DNA of 64,000 nucleotides, from NCBI RefSeq assembly GCF_016862895.1, contig NZ_BONV01000001.1, forward strand, positions 434,001 to 498,000. The letters run 5' to 3'. The stretch is from Planotetraspora kaengkrachanensis. GTDB lineage: Bacteria > Actinomycetota > Actinomycetes > Streptosporangiales > Streptosporangiaceae. The notes beneath the pieces were generated by a model, which worked only from the letters and a program-made list of their open reading frames with translations, was not told the DNA's origin and did not search any database. Below, piece by piece: positions 1,716-54,878 of the stretch; position 1 is the stretch's first letter; each line of letters begins with the position of its first letter. The position numbers and the translations under genes are program-made.

Positions 1716-1834
1716 TGTGCATGATCACGAACCGCGTCGGCGCTGGTCGCGGGACACGTCGCCGAAACCGTGCATGATCACCCCGGGGATCGGCCCAGGT
1801 CATGAGAGTGACGGCCGAAAGTGTGCATGATCAC
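1716..1834 (+). repeat. Three copies of GTGCATGATCAC at ~53-bp period
   Basis: Copies of (T/C)GTGCATGATCAC end at 1728, 1780 and 1834, spacings of 52 and 54 bases. The bases between copies are GC-rich and loosely alike (a CGCCGAAACC-type stretch precedes a copy). This is the same family as the large arrays at 16299-16758. The rest of the 1372-1857 intergenic stretch holds the promoter side of the DUF6421-like gene and no convincing gene. Confidence 0.85.
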
Positions 1835-15826: not shown

Positions 15827-16249
15827 TCAGGCGAGCAGATCACGCGCCTTCTCGATCAGGTCGATCCCCAGGCTGAATTTGATCGTCGCCCACACGATGG
15901 CGGCCGCCACGACCAGGGTCAGCAGCCCTGCCACGATGCGGACGAACCAGTTCTGCCGCTTCAGCCAGTCGGTGGCCGCCATCACCTTGTCCTTGGCGAC
16001 CTGCAACAGCCTCGACGCCCAGGCGAACTCCGTGGCCAGCACGGCGAGGCCGGCGAAGACCACGAGCCAGCCTGGACCGGGGAACGGCACCATGATGAGC
16101 CCGGTGACGATGATGGCCGTGCCGAGCACTCCGACGACGATCTTGAGTGTCAGCCGCCCCGCCGGAGTGGCACGAATGCGATCGAGAAAGCCCATCTCCT
16201 CTGCCAGTACGACCTTCCCCGTGTCGCCGTGCTCCTCGGTCGTCGCCAT
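15827..16249 (-). CDS. TIGR02611-type PGPGW transmembrane protein
   Basis: 140 residues with about three membrane segments. VPFPGPGWLVVFAGLAVLATEFAWA (residues ~54-78) contains the PGPGW motif (57-61) of this actinobacterial membrane family, whose function is unknown. The N-terminus is cytosolic and acidic; helices lie at ~36-55, ~61-78 and ~108-128. ATG 16249 has a G-rich site upstream; a longer in-frame extension runs into the repeat array and is rejected. It is convergent with the amidohydrolase. Confidence 0.85.
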   Translation of the reverse strand: MATTEEHGDTGKVVLAEEMGFLDRIRATPAGRLTLKIVVGVLGTAIIVTGLIMVPFPGPGWLVVFAGLAVLATEFAWASRLLQVAKDKVMAATDWLKRQNWFVRIVAGLLTLVVAAAIVWATIKFSLGIDLIEKARDLLA

Positions 16250-16298: not shown

Positions 16299-16522
16299 GT
16301 GATCATGCACAGGTTCCGAAAAGTGCCCCCCGACCCGCCCAAACCCCCCGCGTGATCATGCACAGGTTCGCGAAAGTACCCCGCGACCTGCCCCCGCTCC
16401 GGCCGTGATCATGCACAGATTCGGCGCAATGCCCCCCGGCCTGGCCGAATCCCAATCGTGATCATGCACACCTTCGCCGGCGCCCCGTCCCACCTGGACG
16501 AATGACAACCGTGATCATGCAC
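16299..16522 (-). repeat. Five copies of GTGATCATGCAC at exactly 53-bp spacing
   Basis: GTGATCATGCACA starts at 16299, 16352, 16405 and 16458, and GTGATCATGCAC at 16511: four successive steps of 53. The 40-base stretches between are degenerate copies of one another (GGTTC.GAAAGT.CCCC.CGACC.GCCC), so this is a decayed 53-bp tandem repeat with a preserved core. Orientation is opposite to the copies at 16590-16758. Confidence 0.95.
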
Positions 16523-16524
16523 GA

Positions 16525-16543
16525 GGGGGCGTGCTTCGCCCCC
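16525..16543. promoter_or_regulatory. Hairpin at the centre of the inverted arrays
   Basis: GGGGGCG and CGCCCCC (7 bp, loop TGCTT) lie between the leftward and rightward repeat arrays. It may simply be a terminator-like element; its central position is notable. Confidence 0.5.
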
Positions 16544-16589
16544 TGTATACCTGTTCCTTCCCCATCGGACACACCCCGACGGCTCCGCT

Positions 16590-16758
16590 TGCATGATCAC
16601 GCAGATCGAATGCGCAGGCCGGCGGGCCGTCCACGAAGTTGTGCATGATCACGGGGAATCTTCACGCAGGTCAGGGCGCATTCCGCCGAACCTGTGCATG
16701 ATCACGGGTGGGGTCGGCGCAGGTGGGGGGCTGCTTCTCCGAGCCTGTGCATGATCAC
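16590..16758 (+). repeat. Four copies of GTGCATGATCAC, inverted relative to the left array
   Basis: Copies end at 16600, 16652, 16705 and 16758 (spacings 52, 53, 53). The intervening sequence (…CGCAGGTC.GGCGCATTCCGCCGAACC) is the reverse complement type of the left array's spacers. The last copy merges into the 21-bp array. Confidence 0.95.
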
Positions 16759-16862
16759 ACCCAAGACAGCCATCATCACACCCAAGACAGCCATGATCAC
16801 CCCCAAGACAAGCGTGATCACCCCCAAACAGGCATGATCACACTCAATGCATGCGTGATCAC
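16751..16862 (+). repeat. Six TGATCAC sites at 21-bp spacing upstream of the aminotransferase
   Basis: RTGATCAC (second copy ATCATCAC) starts at 16751, 16772, 16793, 16814, 16834 and 16855: steps of 21, 21, 21, 20 and 21. Each unit continues ACCCAAGACAG-like. The last site is 16 bases before the ATG at 16878. The 21-base period equals two helical turns, so a protein bound at each TGATCA would sit on one face. It is also seven codons; read in frame from 16751 it would give an MITPKTA-type heptad repeat ending at 16837. Confidence 0.9.
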
Positions 16863-16877
16863 ACCTAATGAGGCAGC

Positions 16878-18215
16878 ATGCCTTACATGCTCGACCGGAA
16901 CCGCCTCCACGACCTGCTCGAACGCGAGCGCCAGACCTACGAGACCCGGCTGCCGCGCAGCAGAGCGGCCTACGACGGCGCCGGCTCCCTTCTGGGTCGT
17001 GTGCCGATGACCTGGATGAACAAGTCCGCCGGGCGCTTCCCCGCCTACCTCGACGAGGCGCGCGGCGCCCGCGTACGCGACATCGACGGCTTCGAGTACG
17101 TCGACTTCTGCCTCGGCGACACCGGCGCGATGGCCGGCCACTCCCCCGAGCCCGTCATGCGTGCCGTAAGAGACCGGCTGGGGTTCACGGCGATGCTGCC
17201 GAGCGAGGACGCGGAGCGGGTCGGGGCCGAGCTGACCCGCCGGTTCAAGGTCGGCCTGTGGAGCTTCAGCCTGACCGCGACCGACGCCAACCGGTGGGCC
17301 ATCCGGCTGGCACGCCAGATCACCGGCAGGCCCAAGATCCTGGTGTTCAACTTCTGCTATCACGGCAGCGTGGACGAGACGGTCGTCACGCTCGGCCCCG
17401 GCGGCGTCACGCTGCCCCGCCCCGGCAACGTCGGCCCGCCCGTCGATCCCGCGCTGACCACCCGGGTCGTCGAGTTCAACGATCTGGACGCCCTGGACCG
17501 GGCGCTGTCCCACGGCGACGTCGCCTGCGTCCTGATGGAGCCCGCGCTGACCAACATCGGCATCGTGCTGCCGGACCCGGGATTCCTGCCGGCCGTACGG
17601 GAACTGACCCGGCGGCACGGCACGCTGCTGATCAACGACGAGACCCACACGTTCTCGGCCGGCCCCGGCGGGTGCACCCGGGCGTGGGACCTCGAGCCCG
17701 ACATCGTGACCATCGGCAAGTCGATCGCCGGGGGCGTCCCGATCGGCGCGTACGGCGTCACGCGGGAGGTGGCCGACCGGATCCTCGCCGAGAAGGACGC
17801 CGACCTCGTCGACGTGGGCGGGGTCGGCGGCACGCTCGCGGGCAACGCCCTGTCCATCGCCGCCGCGCGGGCCACCCTCGAGGAGGTGCTGACGGACGAC
17901 GCCTTCGCCTACATGACCACGCTGGCGGCTCGCTTCACCGACGGCGTGGCCAAAGCGATCGAGGGACTGCCGTGGTCGGTCACTCAGCTCGGCGCCCGTA
18001 CGGAATATCGCTTCGGAGTGCCGAGGAACGGCGGGGAGTCCGCGGCGGCAGGCGACGACGAACTGGACGACTACTTCCACCTCTACCTGCACAACCGCGG
18101 CGTGCTGATGACGCCCTTCCACAACATGGCCCTGATGTGCCCATCGACCACCACCGAGGACGTCGACCTGCACACCGCGCTGTTCACGTCGGCCGTCAGG
18201 GAACTCACAGGTTGA
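16878..18215 (+). CDS. Class III (PLP-dependent) aminotransferase
   Basis: 445 residues, fold type I. The cofactor lysine is Lys281 in TIGKSIAGGVPIGAYG. LINDETHTFSAGPGG holds the Asp that contacts the pyridine ring, and FNFCYHGSVDETV the aromatic/His pair. It resembles glutamate-1-semialdehyde mutase-like aminotransferases, but the N-terminal GRVPMTWMNKSAGRFPAYLDEARG is typical of a group that acts on amino acids or amino alcohols; the substrate is unknown. GAGG lies 6 bases before the ATG. The upstream 21-bp site array probably controls it. Confidence 0.88.
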   Translation: MPYMLDRNRLHDLLERERQTYETRLPRSRAAYDGAGSLLGRVPMTWMNKSAGRFPAYLDEARGARVRDIDGFEYVDFCLGDTGAMAGHSPEPVMRAVRDRLGFTAMLPSEDAERVGAELTRRFKVGLWSFSLTATDANRWAIRLARQITGRPKILVFNFCYHGSVDETVVTLGPGGVTLPRPGNVGPPVDPALTTRVVEFNDLDALDRALSHGDVACVLMEPALTNIGIVLPDPGFLPAVRELTRRHGTLLINDETHTFSAGPGGCTRAWDLEPDIVTIGKSIAGGVPIGAYGVTREVADRILAEKDADLVDVGGVGGTLAGNALSIAAARATLEEVLTDDAFAYMTTLAARFTDGVAKAIEGLPWSVTQLGARTEYRFGVPRNGGESAAAGDDELDDYFHLYLHNRGVLMTPFHNMALMCPSTTTEDVDLHTALFTSAVRELTG

Positions 18216-22109: not shown

Positions 22110-22344
22110 GACATTCCTCCGGATGCTCGACCGAGCGCGAGCACGGGCTCAGTGATGGGATGGGATTCCTCGACCTCGGCTGCCGCCGCCGGTCGACTAT
22201 TGCCCTCTGTTCGTGTCGCGACCCCGTCGTTGTCTTACGTCTGGGCGGACCACCTGCTCGATGCCGAGGAGCATGCACCACGTAGCACGAGCTGACACCC
22301 CAGACGATTACGGGGCAAAGGTTGCTGGACGCGGCACTAGATCA

Positions 22345-22482
22345 CGTGCCAGATGCGTGCCAGATTGAACGGCGATCAGCGGGGACCGACGGGGAGTCAC
22401 GGGGACTCGACCAGCCCTGAGCTGCACTCCCTGTCTCCCAGCTCAGAGGGGGTAGATCAGTAGCCGATTCCCAAGCTGACAG
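22345..22482 (+). repeat. 138-bp direct repeat, copy 1
   Basis: It matches 24709-24836 apart from a 10-base indel and scattered changes. It begins CGTGCCAGATGCGTGCC and ends GATTCCCAAGCTGACAG. The style resembles the ends of integrative elements near tRNA sites. The rest of 22110-22531 has no gene. Confidence 0.92.
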
Positions 22483-22531
22483 CACGTGTTCAAGCGTCCC
22501 CACGCGGTCTGGGTACGGCGGCCGGCCTTTG

Positions 22532-23773
22532 TCACCCCAGGATCGAAGCGGCCCTTGCGTATGCCTGACTGGCCAGGTCGGCAAGCATGGCCTGTTCGCT
22601 GGCCCAGGCGTCGGGATTGTCTGCCGTGAAGGGGCGCGCGACGAGGCGCACCTCGATGAGGTAGTCGCCGTGGCGGATCAGGGCGGCCCAGGTCACCGGA
22701 TAAGCTCCGGATGGGTCCCGGAGGCGGTATCCCCACGCGCCCGCGGGACGTGGGAGCGCGACCTGCTCATAGCGGTCCGTCCACGTGTTCTGCCCATCGG
22801 TCAGCCGTACGGTGGCACACTGCCCGGGAGGGGCGGCCGCCAGTTGGTCCAGGGCGGGTGCGGAGGCGTACACGATCGACTCGCTCATCATCGGCCCACC
22901 GAAGGCGCCGTTGGTGGTGTCGACGAGGAAGGCGCCGCCGAGTACGCCGTGGGACTCGTTCTTCAAGGGGGCGGCGCTCCAGACGCCCTGGGTCCACTGC
23001 CGGCACTCCGGGTGGTCGACAGGCCGGGCGCCGATCTGCGTCTGGCCAATGGTCGCGATCCGCGCGTTGGTGAACGGCGCCGCCTCAGGTGGCAGCTGGT
23101 CCATGGTCTTCGCGCCGTGGAACCGCGTCAGCAGTGCCCGCCGGACGAGGTTGCCTCGGCTTCTGGCAGGCCAGGCCACTACAGGAGGTGGCGGGGTCGC
23201 CGGGATCGTCATGTCCAGATGGAGGCAGGTCGGCGGCGCGCAGGATGCGGAACTGGCAGGTAAGGGCGTCGATGGGGCACTCGGCGATGCAGACCGCTTG
23301 GACACCAGAATGCTCCACCTGGCGCCCTGCGGACCGCTGACCTTAAGGCGGTATGACTGCTCAGTCTCCGGAATGGGCTTGTGGAGGTAACCGTCTGGCC
23401 CGTTCAAACCCACCCGCCCGTTTGAACACCCGAAGCTGACACCGGACGTCTGGCCCACGCGCTCACTGACCTCGATGGTGAGCTTGTCGGGCGATCCGAC
23501 ACAGGCGCCGACAACTTGGAATGCTCCCCCGACCTTGAATTCCCCGCTCCAGGATTGCGCCGTATCGTCGGCGTGGTGCAGAAGGATCTCGCCCTCGACA
23601 TTCTTGGTGAGATCGGGCAGCGACGATGTCTCGCCGGAAACGCCTGCTGTGGCGGGGATGTCTGGAGCGTTCATCGGCGCTGTGGAAGCCGGCGGCCTCG
23701 GGTTGTCGTCGCGATGTGATGAACATCCGGTAACGAGCGCTACGAACGCAGCGAACAGCGCGATTGTGCGCAT
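22532..23773 (-). CDS. Lipoprotein, possibly a chimera of two lipoprotein genes
   Basis: 413 residues. The signal ends in a lipobox (ALVTGC), so it is membrane-anchored and extracytoplasmic. The first ~180 residues form a beta-rich domain (EILLHHADDTAQSWSGEFKVGG…SYRLKVSGPQGARWSILV). A low-complexity Ser/Pro/Ala join follows. The last ~190 residues (ARIATIGQTQIGARP to ASEQAMLADLASQAYARAASILG) resemble the extracellular sensor-type domain of other actinobacterial lipoproteins. No function is known. ATG 23773 has a G-rich site upstream. Repeats flank it on both sides. Confidence 0.75.
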   Translation of the reverse strand: MRTIALFAAFVALVTGCSSHRDDNPRPPASTAPMNAPDIPATAGVSGETSSLPDLTKNVEGEILLHHADDTAQSWSGEFKVGGAFQVVGACVGSPDKLTIEVSERVGQTSGVSFGCSNGRVGLNGPDGYLHKPIPETEQSYRLKVSGPQGARWSILVSKRSASPSAPSTPLPASSASCAPPTCLHLDMTIPATPPPPVVAWPARSRGNLVRRALLTRFHGAKTMDQLPPEAAPFTNARIATIGQTQIGARPVDHPECRQWTQGVWSAAPLKNESHGVLGGAFLVDTTNGAFGGPMMSESIVYASAPALDQLAAAPPGQCATVRLTDGQNTWTDRYEQVALPRPAGAWGYRLRDPSGAYPVTWAALIRHGDYLIEVRLVARPFTADNPDAWASEQAMLADLASQAYARAASILG

Positions 23774-24496: not shown

Positions 24497-24708
24497 TGAC
24501 GATCAACCTATTACCGATGCCTACGGCGACCGACTCAGCGCCCGCCGGCCCGAGGGCACATTCAGGGCACATGGCAGCGTGATCAGGACGAGATGACGCG
24601 AAGCGCCGAGATGCCAAACCCGAAGGTCAGAGACATCATCGGCGCCCCAAAGGTGGTCAGCCACACCACCGTGGCAGTTCACGAACTACTGGTGCTGGCA
24701 CCGGGTCG

Positions 24709-24836
24709 CGTGCCAGATGCGTGCCAGATTGAACGGCGATCAGTGGGGACTCACGGGGACTCGACCAGCGCTGAGCTGCACCTCCTGTTTCCCAGCTCAG
24801 AGCATGTAGATCACTAGCCGATTCCCAAGCTGACAG
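24709..24836 (+). repeat. 128-bp direct repeat, copy 2
   Basis: This is the partner of 22345-22482. Its right end abuts the truncated membrane-protein fragment at 24843, marking a recombination junction. The stretch 24497-24708 holds no gene. Confidence 0.92.
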
Positions 24837-24842
24837 TGTGCC

Positions 24843-25052
24843 GTGTACGGAGTGATCCTCACGGTGACCGGCTTCCTCGACGGCTCGTCCGCCGTACACA
24901 AGGCGGAGGGCGTACGCATCAACCTGTGGACGGGACTCGTCACGCTCCTGGTGGCCGCCGTCTTCCTGGTCTGGGAGCGGGTTCGCCCCACCGACGGGCC
25001 CGAGTCTCACGAGTCTCCGGAGAATTCGGAGGACGGGCCGATCAGTGGGTGA
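24843..25052 (+). pseudogene. C-terminal fragment of a membrane protein
   Basis: 69 codons: YGVILTVTGFLDGSSAVHKAEGVRIN followed by one helix (WTGLVTLLVAAVFLVWERV) and an acidic tail. It reads as the tail of a larger actinobacterial membrane protein whose front was removed at the repeat end (24836). Its end overlaps the convergent substrate-binding protein gene by 11 bases. Confidence 0.6.
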
Positions 25053-26139
25053 CGCCCACGGACGGCCGCACCGGCCCGGCGGGACGTCGGACGGCCTTGG
25101 AGGGAGCCAGGAGACCGTCCTTGACGACGGTCGCGATGACGTTGGCACTAGTGACCACGACCGGAGAGGTGATCATCGCCGGAATCGCCACCGTGGTCCC
25201 ATTGACGACGGTGGCCGTGCCGTACACCGTCCGGCCGCTCCCGAGGTCGACGGCGAGCCGCGCCGCGTTGCGTGCCTCCGGCGCGACCGGTTTGTAGACG
25301 GTCATCGTCTGCGCGCCGTCCAGGATGCGCTGGATTGCCGCGGCCTCGGCACCCTCACCGGTCAGCGGAGTACCGGGCCGCAGGCGAGCCCGCACCATGA
25401 TCGCGGCCACTGCGGCCGCCATGTGGTCGTCGGCCACGTACACGCCGACCACCTTCTGCGGGCCGAGTACGGCGAACGCGTTCGCGGCGGCCGCGGCGGC
25501 CGTCTCCGGGCTGCGGGACGGGATGTCGTACTCCCTCCCGATGATCATCTGGCCGTCCAGGGCCGCGTGGGCGCCCGCCTTGACGTCGGCCGAGGCCCGG
25601 TCGACCGGCGACCCGTTGATCATCACGATCGCGCCGCCGCGCAACTCGCCGCGGGCCCTGATCGCGTCGAGCAGCGCCTGGCCCTGCATCCGGCCGATCT
25701 GGCGGTCGTCGTAGGAGACATACGCGTCGATCGGCCCGTTCGCCAGGCGGTCATAGGCGATGACCTTGGCCCCGTGGAACTTGGCCCGGGCGACCGCCGA
25801 CGCGATCCCCCGCACGTCCACGGCGCCGAGGATGAACACCTTGATCCCCTCGGCCAGCATCGCGTCCATCTGCCGTTCCTGCCGGGCGTGGTCGCGCCCG
25901 GCGTTGGCGTACACGACCTCGCATCGGGGGCACAGGGCGGTCAGGGCCCTGGTGATGTACGGCCGGTCGTACTTCTCGTAGCGGCTTTCGCCCTTCTCCG
26001 GAAGCAGCAGGCCGATCCGGAAGCCGTCGCGGACCGTGCCGACCGCGCCGAGCGGCCGTGGAGCCCCGCATGCCGCGAGGCCGATGAGGAAGATGAGGAA
26101 GACGCCTGGCACCGCGAAGCGAAACCCCTGTCTCCCCAC
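25042..26139 (-). CDS. Sugar ABC transporter substrate-binding lipoprotein (XylF-like)
   Basis: 365 residues. A lipobox (LIGLAAC) tethers it outside the membrane. The periplasmic-binding fold type I is clear: FRIGLLLPEKGESRYEKYDRPYI, ARQERQMDAMLAEGIKVFILGAVD, VIAYDRLANGPIDAYVSYDD, GAIVMINGSPVD, VVGVYVADDHMAAAV and GEGAEAAAIQRIL. This is the D-xylose-binding protein pattern. No permease or ATPase is next to it, so it is an orphan sensor or transport partner. Confidence 0.88.
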   Translation of the reverse strand: MGRQGFRFAVPGVFLIFLIGLAACGAPRPLGAVGTVRDGFRIGLLLPEKGESRYEKYDRPYITRALTALCPRCEVVYANAGRDHARQERQMDAMLAEGIKVFILGAVDVRGIASAVARAKFHGAKVIAYDRLANGPIDAYVSYDDRQIGRMQGQALLDAIRARGELRGGAIVMINGSPVDRASADVKAGAHAALDGQMIIGREYDIPSRSPETAAAAAANAFAVLGPQKVVGVYVADDHMAAAVAAIMVRARLRPGTPLTGEGAEAAAIQRILDGAQTMTVYKPVAPEARNAARLAVDLGSGRTVYGTATVVNGTTVAIPAMITSPVVVTSANVIATVVKDGLLAPSKAVRRPAGPVRPSVGVTH

Positions 26140-26554: not shown

Positions 26555-26631
26555 GGGGCGGTAGCTCAGCCGGTCAGAGCATCGGACTCATAATCCGTGG
26601 GTCGTGGGTTCAAGTCCCACCCGCCCTACCA
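26555..26631 (+). tRNA. tRNA with anticodon CAT (elongator Met or Ile2)
   Basis: The acceptor GGGGCGG pairs with CCGCCCT (one G-U), the D stem is GCTC/GAGC, the anticodon loop CTCATAA carries CAT, and the T arm GTGGG/CCCAC is perfect with TTCAAGT. Discriminator A and an encoded CCA end it. CAT is Met unless the C is lysidinylated (Ile2); the sequence alone does not decide. Confidence 0.95.
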
Positions 26632-54805: not shown

Positions 54806-54878
54806 GCCTCTGTGGCGCAGTGGAAAGCGCGCCTGCTTGCGGAGCAGGAGGTCGCCGGTTCGATTCCAGCCAGAGGCA
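54806..54878 (+). tRNA. tRNA with anticodon GCG (Arg)
   Basis: GCCTCTG pairs perfectly with CAGAGGC, the D stem is GCGC/GCGC, the anticodon stem CCTGC/GCAGG holds loop TTGCGGA, anticodon GCG (CGC/CGU codons). The T stem GCCGG/CCAGC has one C-A mismatch. It ends A-CC without encoded CCA. Arg CGN codons are normally read by ICG, so a GCG anticodon is unusual in bacteria. Confidence 0.75.

What the first reader, a model, noticed from the sequence alone, without database searches (positions are those of the whole stretch)
16299..16758. Inverted pair of 53-bp-phased GTGCATGATCAC arrays with a hairpin at the centre
Five leftward copies step by exactly 53, four rightward copies step by 52-53, and a 7-bp GC hairpin (16525-16543) lies between the two sets. 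The core is far better kept than the degenerate bases around it, which suggests selection. 53 bases is about five helical turns, so all cores would face one side of the DNA. This looks like a nucleoid-protein or regulator binding platform rather than plain junk.
Basis: partly seen in the sequence, partly recalled or inferred. Interest (0 to 1): 0.75.

Follow-up and report, generated by a model that had tools for sequence, protein, structure and literature searches.

The report
Spaced DNA-motif arrays at gene ends
Between the genes of this soil actinomycete lie many short arrays of one 11-12 letter DNA word, kept almost letter-perfect at fixed 53-letter steps and pointing outward toward the neighbouring genes; the same word forms similar arrays in a few distant relatives, so it is probably read by an unknown DNA-binding protein.

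Summary
GTGCATGATCAC stands at 16299-16758 as 5 leftward copies (step 53) and 4 rightward copies (52, 53, 53; the innermost with one mismatch). The genome has 652 exact copies, the reversed control none. The motif is genus-wide (5 of 5 Planotetraspora genomes). Copies lie outside genes (5 of 444 inside), opposite exact neighbours point outward 51 to 0, and 223 of 271 same-strand neighbours are exactly 53 bp apart. Arrays favour convergent over divergent gene spaces. Between species the core differs at 1.7% of sites, spacers at 29%, and 1 of 56 matched spacers changed length. The word TGCATGATCAC forms intergenic arrays with other flanks and steps in four actinomycete families (7 of 394 genomes). 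The central hairpin and 21-bp tail are absent from four relatives. Units are not palindromic and PF01797 was not found in 5 array-rich genomes, so this is not REP/BIME by definition. Most likely: binding sites of an unidentified sequence-specific DNA-binding protein marking gene ends, probably a transcription or topology boundary. Selection on the core is well supported; the boundary function is inferred and the protein was not found.

The parts
16299..16522 (-). left arm: five exact cores (16299, 16352, 16405, 16458, 16511), period 53, pointing left
   Evidence: left arm present in G001, G002, G003 and, with core variant CTGCATGATCAC, in G004; no core at the G062 locus
16589..16758 (+). right arm: four cores (16589 with one mismatch, 16641, 16694, 16747), pointing right
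   Evidence: right arm kept in G001 and G003 (5 and 4 cores with at most one mismatch), one core left in G002, none at that threshold in G004
16524..16544 (.).
16750..16865 (+). 21-bp tandem tail (5.6 units) of decayed CATGATCAC copies at the outer end of the right arm; not found in four relatives
   Evidence: absent in G001-G004
1717..1834 (+). second array in the window: three exact cores, period 53, 23 bp from the 3' end of the Gfo/Idh-type gene 1858-2712
15827..16249 (-). flanking gene, PGPGW membrane protein (PF09656); left arm starts 49 bp upstream of it
16878..18215 (+). flanking gene, class-III aminotransferase (PF00202); only its last 104 bp matched at the G004 locus

Best explanation
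The arrays are cis-acting clusters of binding sites for an unidentified, sequence-specific DNA-binding protein whose site is TGCATGATCAC (in Planotetraspora with a CGAAyCTG lead-in and a trailing G). Several protein copies would sit on one arm at fixed 53-bp steps and form a nucleoprotein barrier at the edge of a gene, mostly beyond stop codons. The barrier would stop or terminate RNA polymerase leaving the gene, or close off a supercoiled domain, and so keep neighbouring transcription units apart. Shown: the sequence conservation, the fixed spacing, the outward polarity, the extragenic location and the preference for gene 3' ends. Inferred: the protein, its cooperative binding, and the boundary function.
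For: 652 exact copies in 8.77 Mb, control 0; 165 to 698 in 5 of 5 genomes of the genus. 5 of 444 distinct cores lie inside called genes; 103 of 156 classified clusters point at a gene 3' end (median 18 bp), 53 at a 5' end (median 119 bp). Neighbouring opposite exact cores: 51 outward, 0 inward; 223 of 271 same-strand neighbours at exactly 53 bp. Orthologous units: core divergence 0.017, spacer 0.290, 44 comparisons. Length changed in 1 of 56 matched spacers despite 590 substitutions; about 82 gap events would follow from the rate in non-array intergenic DNA (my multiplication). Of 153 chains of three or more units, two reach six; exactness falls from 79% at the second core from the gene to 32% at the fourth in 3'-facing chains. 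In the unrelated genome G358 the most frequent 11-mer of a contiguous 400 kb is this same word (57 places, next 55), with arrays in 8 of 16 convergent, 10 of 71 tandem and 2 of 32 divergent spaces (p = 0.001 convergent against divergent). Arrays occur in four families with unlike flanks and steps, which points to a common reader of the core. Array-bearing 3' ends have fewer strongly folded downstream regions (z < -2 in 13 of 100 against 48 of 189, p = 0.015).
Against: In tandem gene pairs arms face 5' ends nearly as often as 3' ends (8 to 9 in G000 loci, 25 to 32 in the named loci, 7 to 9 in G001/G003 loci), so orientation does not follow transcription. The finding's own locus lies between divergent genes. 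Polarity is not absolute: with one mismatch allowed it is 42 outward to 1 inward, with two 48 to 14 (partly chance matches), in three other genomes 15 to 4, and G053/G092 have inward pairs. Pairs at about 53 bp occur in 7 of 297 genomes of the family, array pairs in 7 of 394 of the class. At the syntenic G062 locus no core remains. The folding difference is modest and partly follows from the composition of the array. No candidate protein was found. In other families spacing varies, so cooperative phasing is not general.
Confidence: 0.45

Rival explanations
1. BIME-like topological or nucleoid anchor: the arrays recruit gyrase or a nucleoid-associated protein where positive supercoils pile up downstream of genes, with no direct effect on termination.
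For: Extragenic, several hundred copies, clustered, richest between convergent genes; REP/BIME elements are reported to bind gyrase, IHF and Pol I (background section of PMC2817692).
Against: The polar, non-palindromic core and the fixed step are unlike BIMEs; gyrase occupancy could not be tested.
Confidence: 0.25
2. Selfish or slippage-driven repeats: an ancestral dyad (two cores back to back, about 23 bp apart) was spread by a transposase and each half then grew outward by unit duplication; the host gains nothing.
For: 12 of 51 innermost exact distances equal 23, 76, 129 or 182, that is 23 + 53n; in G004 10 of 20 (-,+) pairs are 22-24 bp apart; neighbouring spacers are slightly more alike toward the gene (0.59, 0.56, 0.54 against 0.50 for unrelated ones); G358 and G564 have recent near-identical tandem copies; patchy presence within a genus (58 pairs in G614, 0 in G578).
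Against: Core and spacing are held while spacers diverge; all 17 ortholog comparisons keep an array in place, though those stretches were fetched around motif places, so losses are under-seen; PF01797 (Y1/RAYT) was not found in 5 of 5 array-rich genomes G000-G003 and G062, but gave 4 matches in G004, and other transposases were not tested; the same core recurs with unrelated flanks in four families.
Confidence: 0.2
3. RNA-level 3'-UTR element: the transcript leaving the gene is C-rich and G-poor and carries GUGAUCAUGCA repeats, which load Rho or an RNA-binding protein.
For: First 25 nt after array-bearing stops: C 0.42, G 0.23, against C 0.37-0.39, G 0.33-0.35 at other ends (part of these 25 nt can be array); weaker folding of array-bearing ends.
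Against: 53 of 156 clusters point at gene 5' ends, where the transcript would be antisense; no pairing covariation at the candidate stem and no excess fold of the unit on either strand.
Confidence: 0.15
4. Ordinary operators of a regulon, or a regulator platform at promoters.
For: A conserved short motif with fixed spacing is typical of protein sites; the finding's locus lies between divergent genes.
Against: Divergent spaces carry arrays least: 2 of 53 in G000 loci and 12 of 84 in the named loci, 2 of 32 in G358; 30 proteins at or near arrays show no common theme.
Confidence: 0.08

Closest known systems
REP sequences and BIMEs of enterobacteria and Pseudomonas
   Same: Hundreds of short extragenic copies, clustered; REP/BIME are reported to bind proteins and to aid Rho-dependent termination (PMC2817692, abstract and background section), and REPs at ORF 3' ends to be gyrase targets (passage in PMC3733652)
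   Different: Unit is not a palindrome; the two halves of an array are oriented outward rather than alternating; PF01797 not found in 5 array-rich genomes; core held at a fixed 53-bp step
TAACTGA direct-repeat sets of Beggiatoaceae, Cyanobacteria and Bacteroidetes (PMC4679880, abstract read)
   Same: One short word repeated 2-6 times in many intergenic sets, patchy across distant lineages, unknown reader
   Different: Heptamer direct repeats mostly just before start codons, against an 11-12-mer with 41-bp spacers mostly facing gene 3' ends
Polar protein-bound terminators such as the Sal-box/TTF-I and Reb1 sites of eukaryotic rDNA (recalled, not looked up)
   Same: Direct repeats of a short protein site beyond gene ends, with one orientation toward the arriving polymerase
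   Different: Eukaryotic, one locus type; here many loci in bacteria, and orientation in tandem gene pairs is mixed
CRISPR arrays
   Same: Short repeats at regular steps with differing spacers
   Different: The conserved core is 12 bp (CRISPR repeats 24-48 bp, passage in PMC3733652), spacers share a consensus, and the 652 copies lie in many small arrays

Membership tests
REP/BIME | repeat contains an imperfect palindrome | tested here: not met
   150 units fold no better than dinucleotide shuffles, mean z -0.08 and -0.03; no covariation at the candidate stem in 442 units
REP/BIME | associated Y1 (RAYT) transposase in the genome | tested here: not met
   PF01797: no match in G000, G001, G002, G003, G062; 4 matches in G004
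REP/BIME | more than 100 extragenic copies per genome | tested here: met
   652 exact cores; 5 of 444 inside called genes
REP/BIME | repeats in alternating orientation within a cluster | tested here: not met
   271 same-strand neighbours, 51 (-,+) and 0 (+,-) pairs of exact cores
REP/BIME | binds gyrase, IHF or Pol I | not testable with these tools
   needs ChIP or cleavage mapping
CRISPR | near-identical 24-48 bp repeats with unrelated spacers | tested here: not met
   conserved core is 12 bp and the spacers share consensus elements
CRISPR | adjacent cas genes | not tested
   not searched for; the 30 proteins at or near arrays scanned with Pfam show none
Intrinsic terminator | stable hairpin after the stop codon | tested here: not met
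   array-bearing ends fold less strongly than other ends: z < -2 in 13 of 100 against 48 of 189
Known structured RNA | match to an Rfam family | tested here: not met
   only two tRNAs in the window at gathering scores
Protein-binding array | core conserved against its spacers | tested here: met
   0.017 against 0.290 in 44 comparisons
Protein-binding array | a protein that binds it | not testable with these tools
   no protein identified; among 536 array-flanking proteins no group spans more than two of the four families at the thresholds used

The most novel reading that the evidence does not exclude
A patchily distributed actinomycete system for chromosome boundaries: a dedicated DNA-binding protein reads TGCATGATCAC, and each lineage has built its own mostly outward-pointing arrays of that site at many gene ends, which act as polar barriers to RNA polymerase or to supercoil diffusion, in effect a bacterial insulator.
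Probability: 0.3. Interest if true: 0.88.

Novelty: new variant of a known kind. Interest (0 to 1): 0.68.

Why it matters
If true, bacteria would have a sequence-coded way to fence off transcription units, with the same 11-letter word amplified as intergenic arrays in at least four actinomycete families. The presence/absence contrast inside one genus (G614 with 58 pairs, G578 with none) makes the unknown reader findable by plain gene-content comparison. Even if the arrays turn out to be selfish, they are a repeat class that fails the palindrome, alternation and Y1/RAYT tests for REP/BIME.

Tried and rejected
RNA hairpin ACCTGTGC...GCGCAGGT within the unit: suggested by the consensus, but no covariation and no excess fold. 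REPIN/RAYT origin: PF01797 not found in 5 array-rich genomes. Viral origin: 6 stretches of viral contigs matched and all were printed; their GC is 0.42-0.50, four share one sequence, which in L226 lies inside an ORF, and two share a tandem repeat of one contig, with flanks unlike ours. Chromosome-strand polarity in G062: a run of '+' places is, by my reading of how lists are cut (per contig, forward places first), a listing artefact; these cut lists were not used for counts. Ancestral operator near one conserved gene: 20 regions of other genera, one of them from array-bearing G120, held the motif mostly inside called genes, with a dyad in L227 and L228 and a partial one in L238. One gene shared beside arrays in all four families: none found. 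ArgR box: the 11-mer occurs once in PMC5839063 (passages read; the passage holding it was not shown), but ARG boxes there are imperfect palindromes of up to 20 nt and the core holds only one TGCAT half; not pursued. Literature: searches for the 12-mer (0 papers), the 11-mer (23 papers, 20 listed, none about such repeats by title), Planotetraspora intergenic and general terms showed no description of these arrays; only open-licence PubMed Central papers were searchable. PMC12306157 was searched by term only.

Limits: gene borders come from my own codon-usage caller. Most loci were chosen because they hold arrays, and the G001/G003 stretches too, so cannot measure loss; of 26 array regions, 11 had an ortholog in the stretches at hand. 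The contiguous 400 kb of G358 is the unselected sample. The 108 copies are 97 distinct ones, since the window overlaps two fetched loci. In one search, 17 of 173 clusters (15 edge, 2 in gene) were left out of the 156. One search kept unit pairs with spacer identity of at least 0.66, counts both directions, and starts from exact cores in one genome. One search kept spacers between cores 45-61 bp apart and identity of at least 0.62, so larger length changes would be missed. In one search the outermost core had to have at most one mismatch while inner ones could have up to four, so its 85% exactness is partly by construction, and the fifth core (22 of 101 3'-facing chains) is exact in 50%, against a smooth decline.

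Full report
Observation. The window has a second array at 1717-1834 and a 21-bp tandem tail of decayed copies at 16750-16865. The genome G000 (8.77 Mb, 96 contigs) has 332 + 320 exact copies, with none for the reversed word. All 5 genomes of the genus searched, G000 among them, have 165 to 698 copies.

Anatomy. From 108 copies in G000 (97 distinct) the 53-bp unit reads CGAAyCT-GTGCATGATCAC-G, then a poorly kept stretch, a second weaker element GCAGGTCAG about half a step on, and another free stretch. In 100 loci (80 named Planotetraspora loci and 20 of G000; 444 distinct exact cores), same-strand neighbours within 400 bp number 271: 223 are exactly 53 bp apart, 13 at 52 or 54, and 22 at 105 or 106, that is about two steps. 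Opposite-strand exact neighbours are (-,+) 51 times and (+,-) never; with one mismatch allowed 42 and 1, with two 48 and 14. The distance between the two innermost exact cores is 23, 76, 129 or 182 in 12 of 51 cases, so the arms often share one register. Of 153 chains of three or more units, two reach six. In the 101 chains facing 3' ends the core next to the gene is exact in 85% (partly by construction), the second in 79%, the third in 55%, the fourth in 32% and the fifth in 50% of the 22 that have one.

Place in the genome. Of 173 clusters, 156 could be classified: 103 point at a gene 3' end (median 18 bp) and 53 at a 5' end (median 119 bp); 5 of 444 cores are inside called genes. In 24 of the 103 the gene's last four bases are the core's first four, so its TGA stop lies inside the core. 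In the 20 G000 loci arrays occupy 10 of 24 convergent, 14 of 68 tandem and 2 of 53 divergent spaces of at least 100 bp; in the 80 named loci 33 of 49, 38 of 120 and 12 of 84; in the window 0 of 5, 1 of 15 and 1 of 12. These loci, the window aside, were chosen for their arrays. In tandem spaces arms face 3' and 5' ends about equally (9 to 8; 32 to 25; 9 to 7 in G001/G003 loci), so outward polarity is a property of the array and not of the direction of transcription. Thirty proteins at or near arrays have no common theme.

Selection. 17 ortholog comparisons (11 regions of G000 against G001 or G003) all keep an array in place, but the compared stretches had been fetched around motif places. With the core masked during matching, 44 unit comparisons give 0.017 divergence for the core and 0.290 for the spacers; nine of the 44 have one core change. 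Of 56 matched spacers with 590 substitutions, one changed length, whereas non-array intergenic DNA shows 0.139 gap events per substitution, which would predict about 82 events (my arithmetic). Selection therefore most likely keeps both the word and the step in this genus. The filters of these two tests are stated under Tried and rejected.

The locus of the finding. The orthologous place was found by DNA similarity, whatever its arrays. G001 and G003 keep both arms, with the same 66 bp between them as in the window; G002 keeps the left arm and one core of the right; G004 keeps a left arm with core CTGCATGATCAC and more decayed right copies. At the G062 place the next genes differ and no core remains.

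Relatives. In 297 genomes of the family, pairs at about 53 bp occur in 7. The exact 12-mer is frequent in the five genomes of the genus and in G062 (552), moderate in G053, G092, G054 and G186 (24 to 37), and 0 to 6 elsewhere; the reversed control gave one hit each in G006 and G135. G054 uses a step of 41 (14 of 16 same-strand neighbours) with the same polarity; G053 and G092 have inward pairs 29-30 bp apart (7 pairs). Across 246 genomes of the phylum only G000 and G358, in another family, have many TGCAWGATCACG; the rest have 0 to 6. Across 394 genomes of the class, array pairs occur in 7: G000, G120, G358, G614, G564, G668 and G756, in four families. In G358 the flank is GGGTGGCGGGAT and the step varies between arrays. 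The same 11-mer is the commonest 11-mer of a contiguous 400 kb there, by a small margin (57 places, next 55), with 1 of 57 cores in a gene and arrays in 8 of 16 convergent, 10 of 71 tandem and 2 of 32 divergent spaces. In G614, G668, G756 and G564, 2 of 106 cores lie in genes, 30 of 46 classified clusters face 3' ends, and opposite neighbours are 15 outward to 4 inward. Presence is patchy: 2 of 5 genomes in the family of G614, and one of two in its genus.

Mechanism. One word held in unlike flanks and at unlike steps in separate families suggests that a conserved factor reads the word itself. The unit shows no pairing covariation and no excess folding on either strand, so DNA recognition is more likely than a folded RNA. 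The excess at gene 3' ends, the C-rich G-poor sense strand after array-bearing stops (C 0.42, G 0.23 in the first 25 nt) and the smaller share of strongly folded ends (13 of 100 against 48 of 189, p = 0.015) fit a role in ending or fencing transcription. Mixed orientation in tandem spaces, this locus's own divergent setting and the many gene ends without arrays speak against a plain terminator. I therefore put a protein-bound boundary first, with the BIME-like topological anchor, selfish repeats and an RNA-level 3' element as rivals.

Comparison with known systems. The nearest known kind is REP/BIME (PMC2817692, abstract and background section). The copy number and extragenic position are shared, but the palindrome, the alternating orientation and the Y1/RAYT transposase were tested and not met. 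It may work like a BIME without being one. The TAACTGA repeats of Beggiatoaceae (PMC4679880, abstract) are a parallel in spread but sit mostly before start codons. No paper found by my searches describes these arrays.

Noticed in passing
window 22342-22584 and 24657-25148: Two ORFs on the minus strand share a stretch of similar translation (LSAWESA..DL..LSWETG.AAQ.WSSPR.SP), which suggests a second dispersed repeat in the window (translations).
   Followed up: no
L179 (G004) and L180 (G062): The class-III aminotransferase beside the array is reduced to its last 104 bp at the G004 locus, and gave no match in the syntenic G062 stretch; its G062 matches are on other contigs.
   Followed up: partly
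L132, L134: In G092 and G053 the same core occurs as inward pairs 30 bp apart inside a near-palindrome (AAGTGCATGATCAC...GTGATCATGCACTT), the opposite polarity to Planotetraspora.
   Followed up: partly
L135, L150-L152, L186-L190: In arrays of G186 and G120 the cores often differ by position: inner TTGCAAGATCAC, middle GTGCATGATCAC, outer ACTACAAGATCACG next to the gene.
   Followed up: partly
L156-L175 (G004): In the G004 stretches CTGCATGATCA is commoner than the G-starting core, and many GTGCATGATCAC copies sit in back-to-back central dyads.
   Followed up: partly
L266 9885-10247: G564 carries a run of 16 exact cores at 22-bp steps (one gap of 44), longer than any Planotetraspora chain seen.
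   Followed up: no
window 26555-26628 and 54806-54878: Two tRNA genes, the only Rfam matches at gathering score.
   Followed up: no
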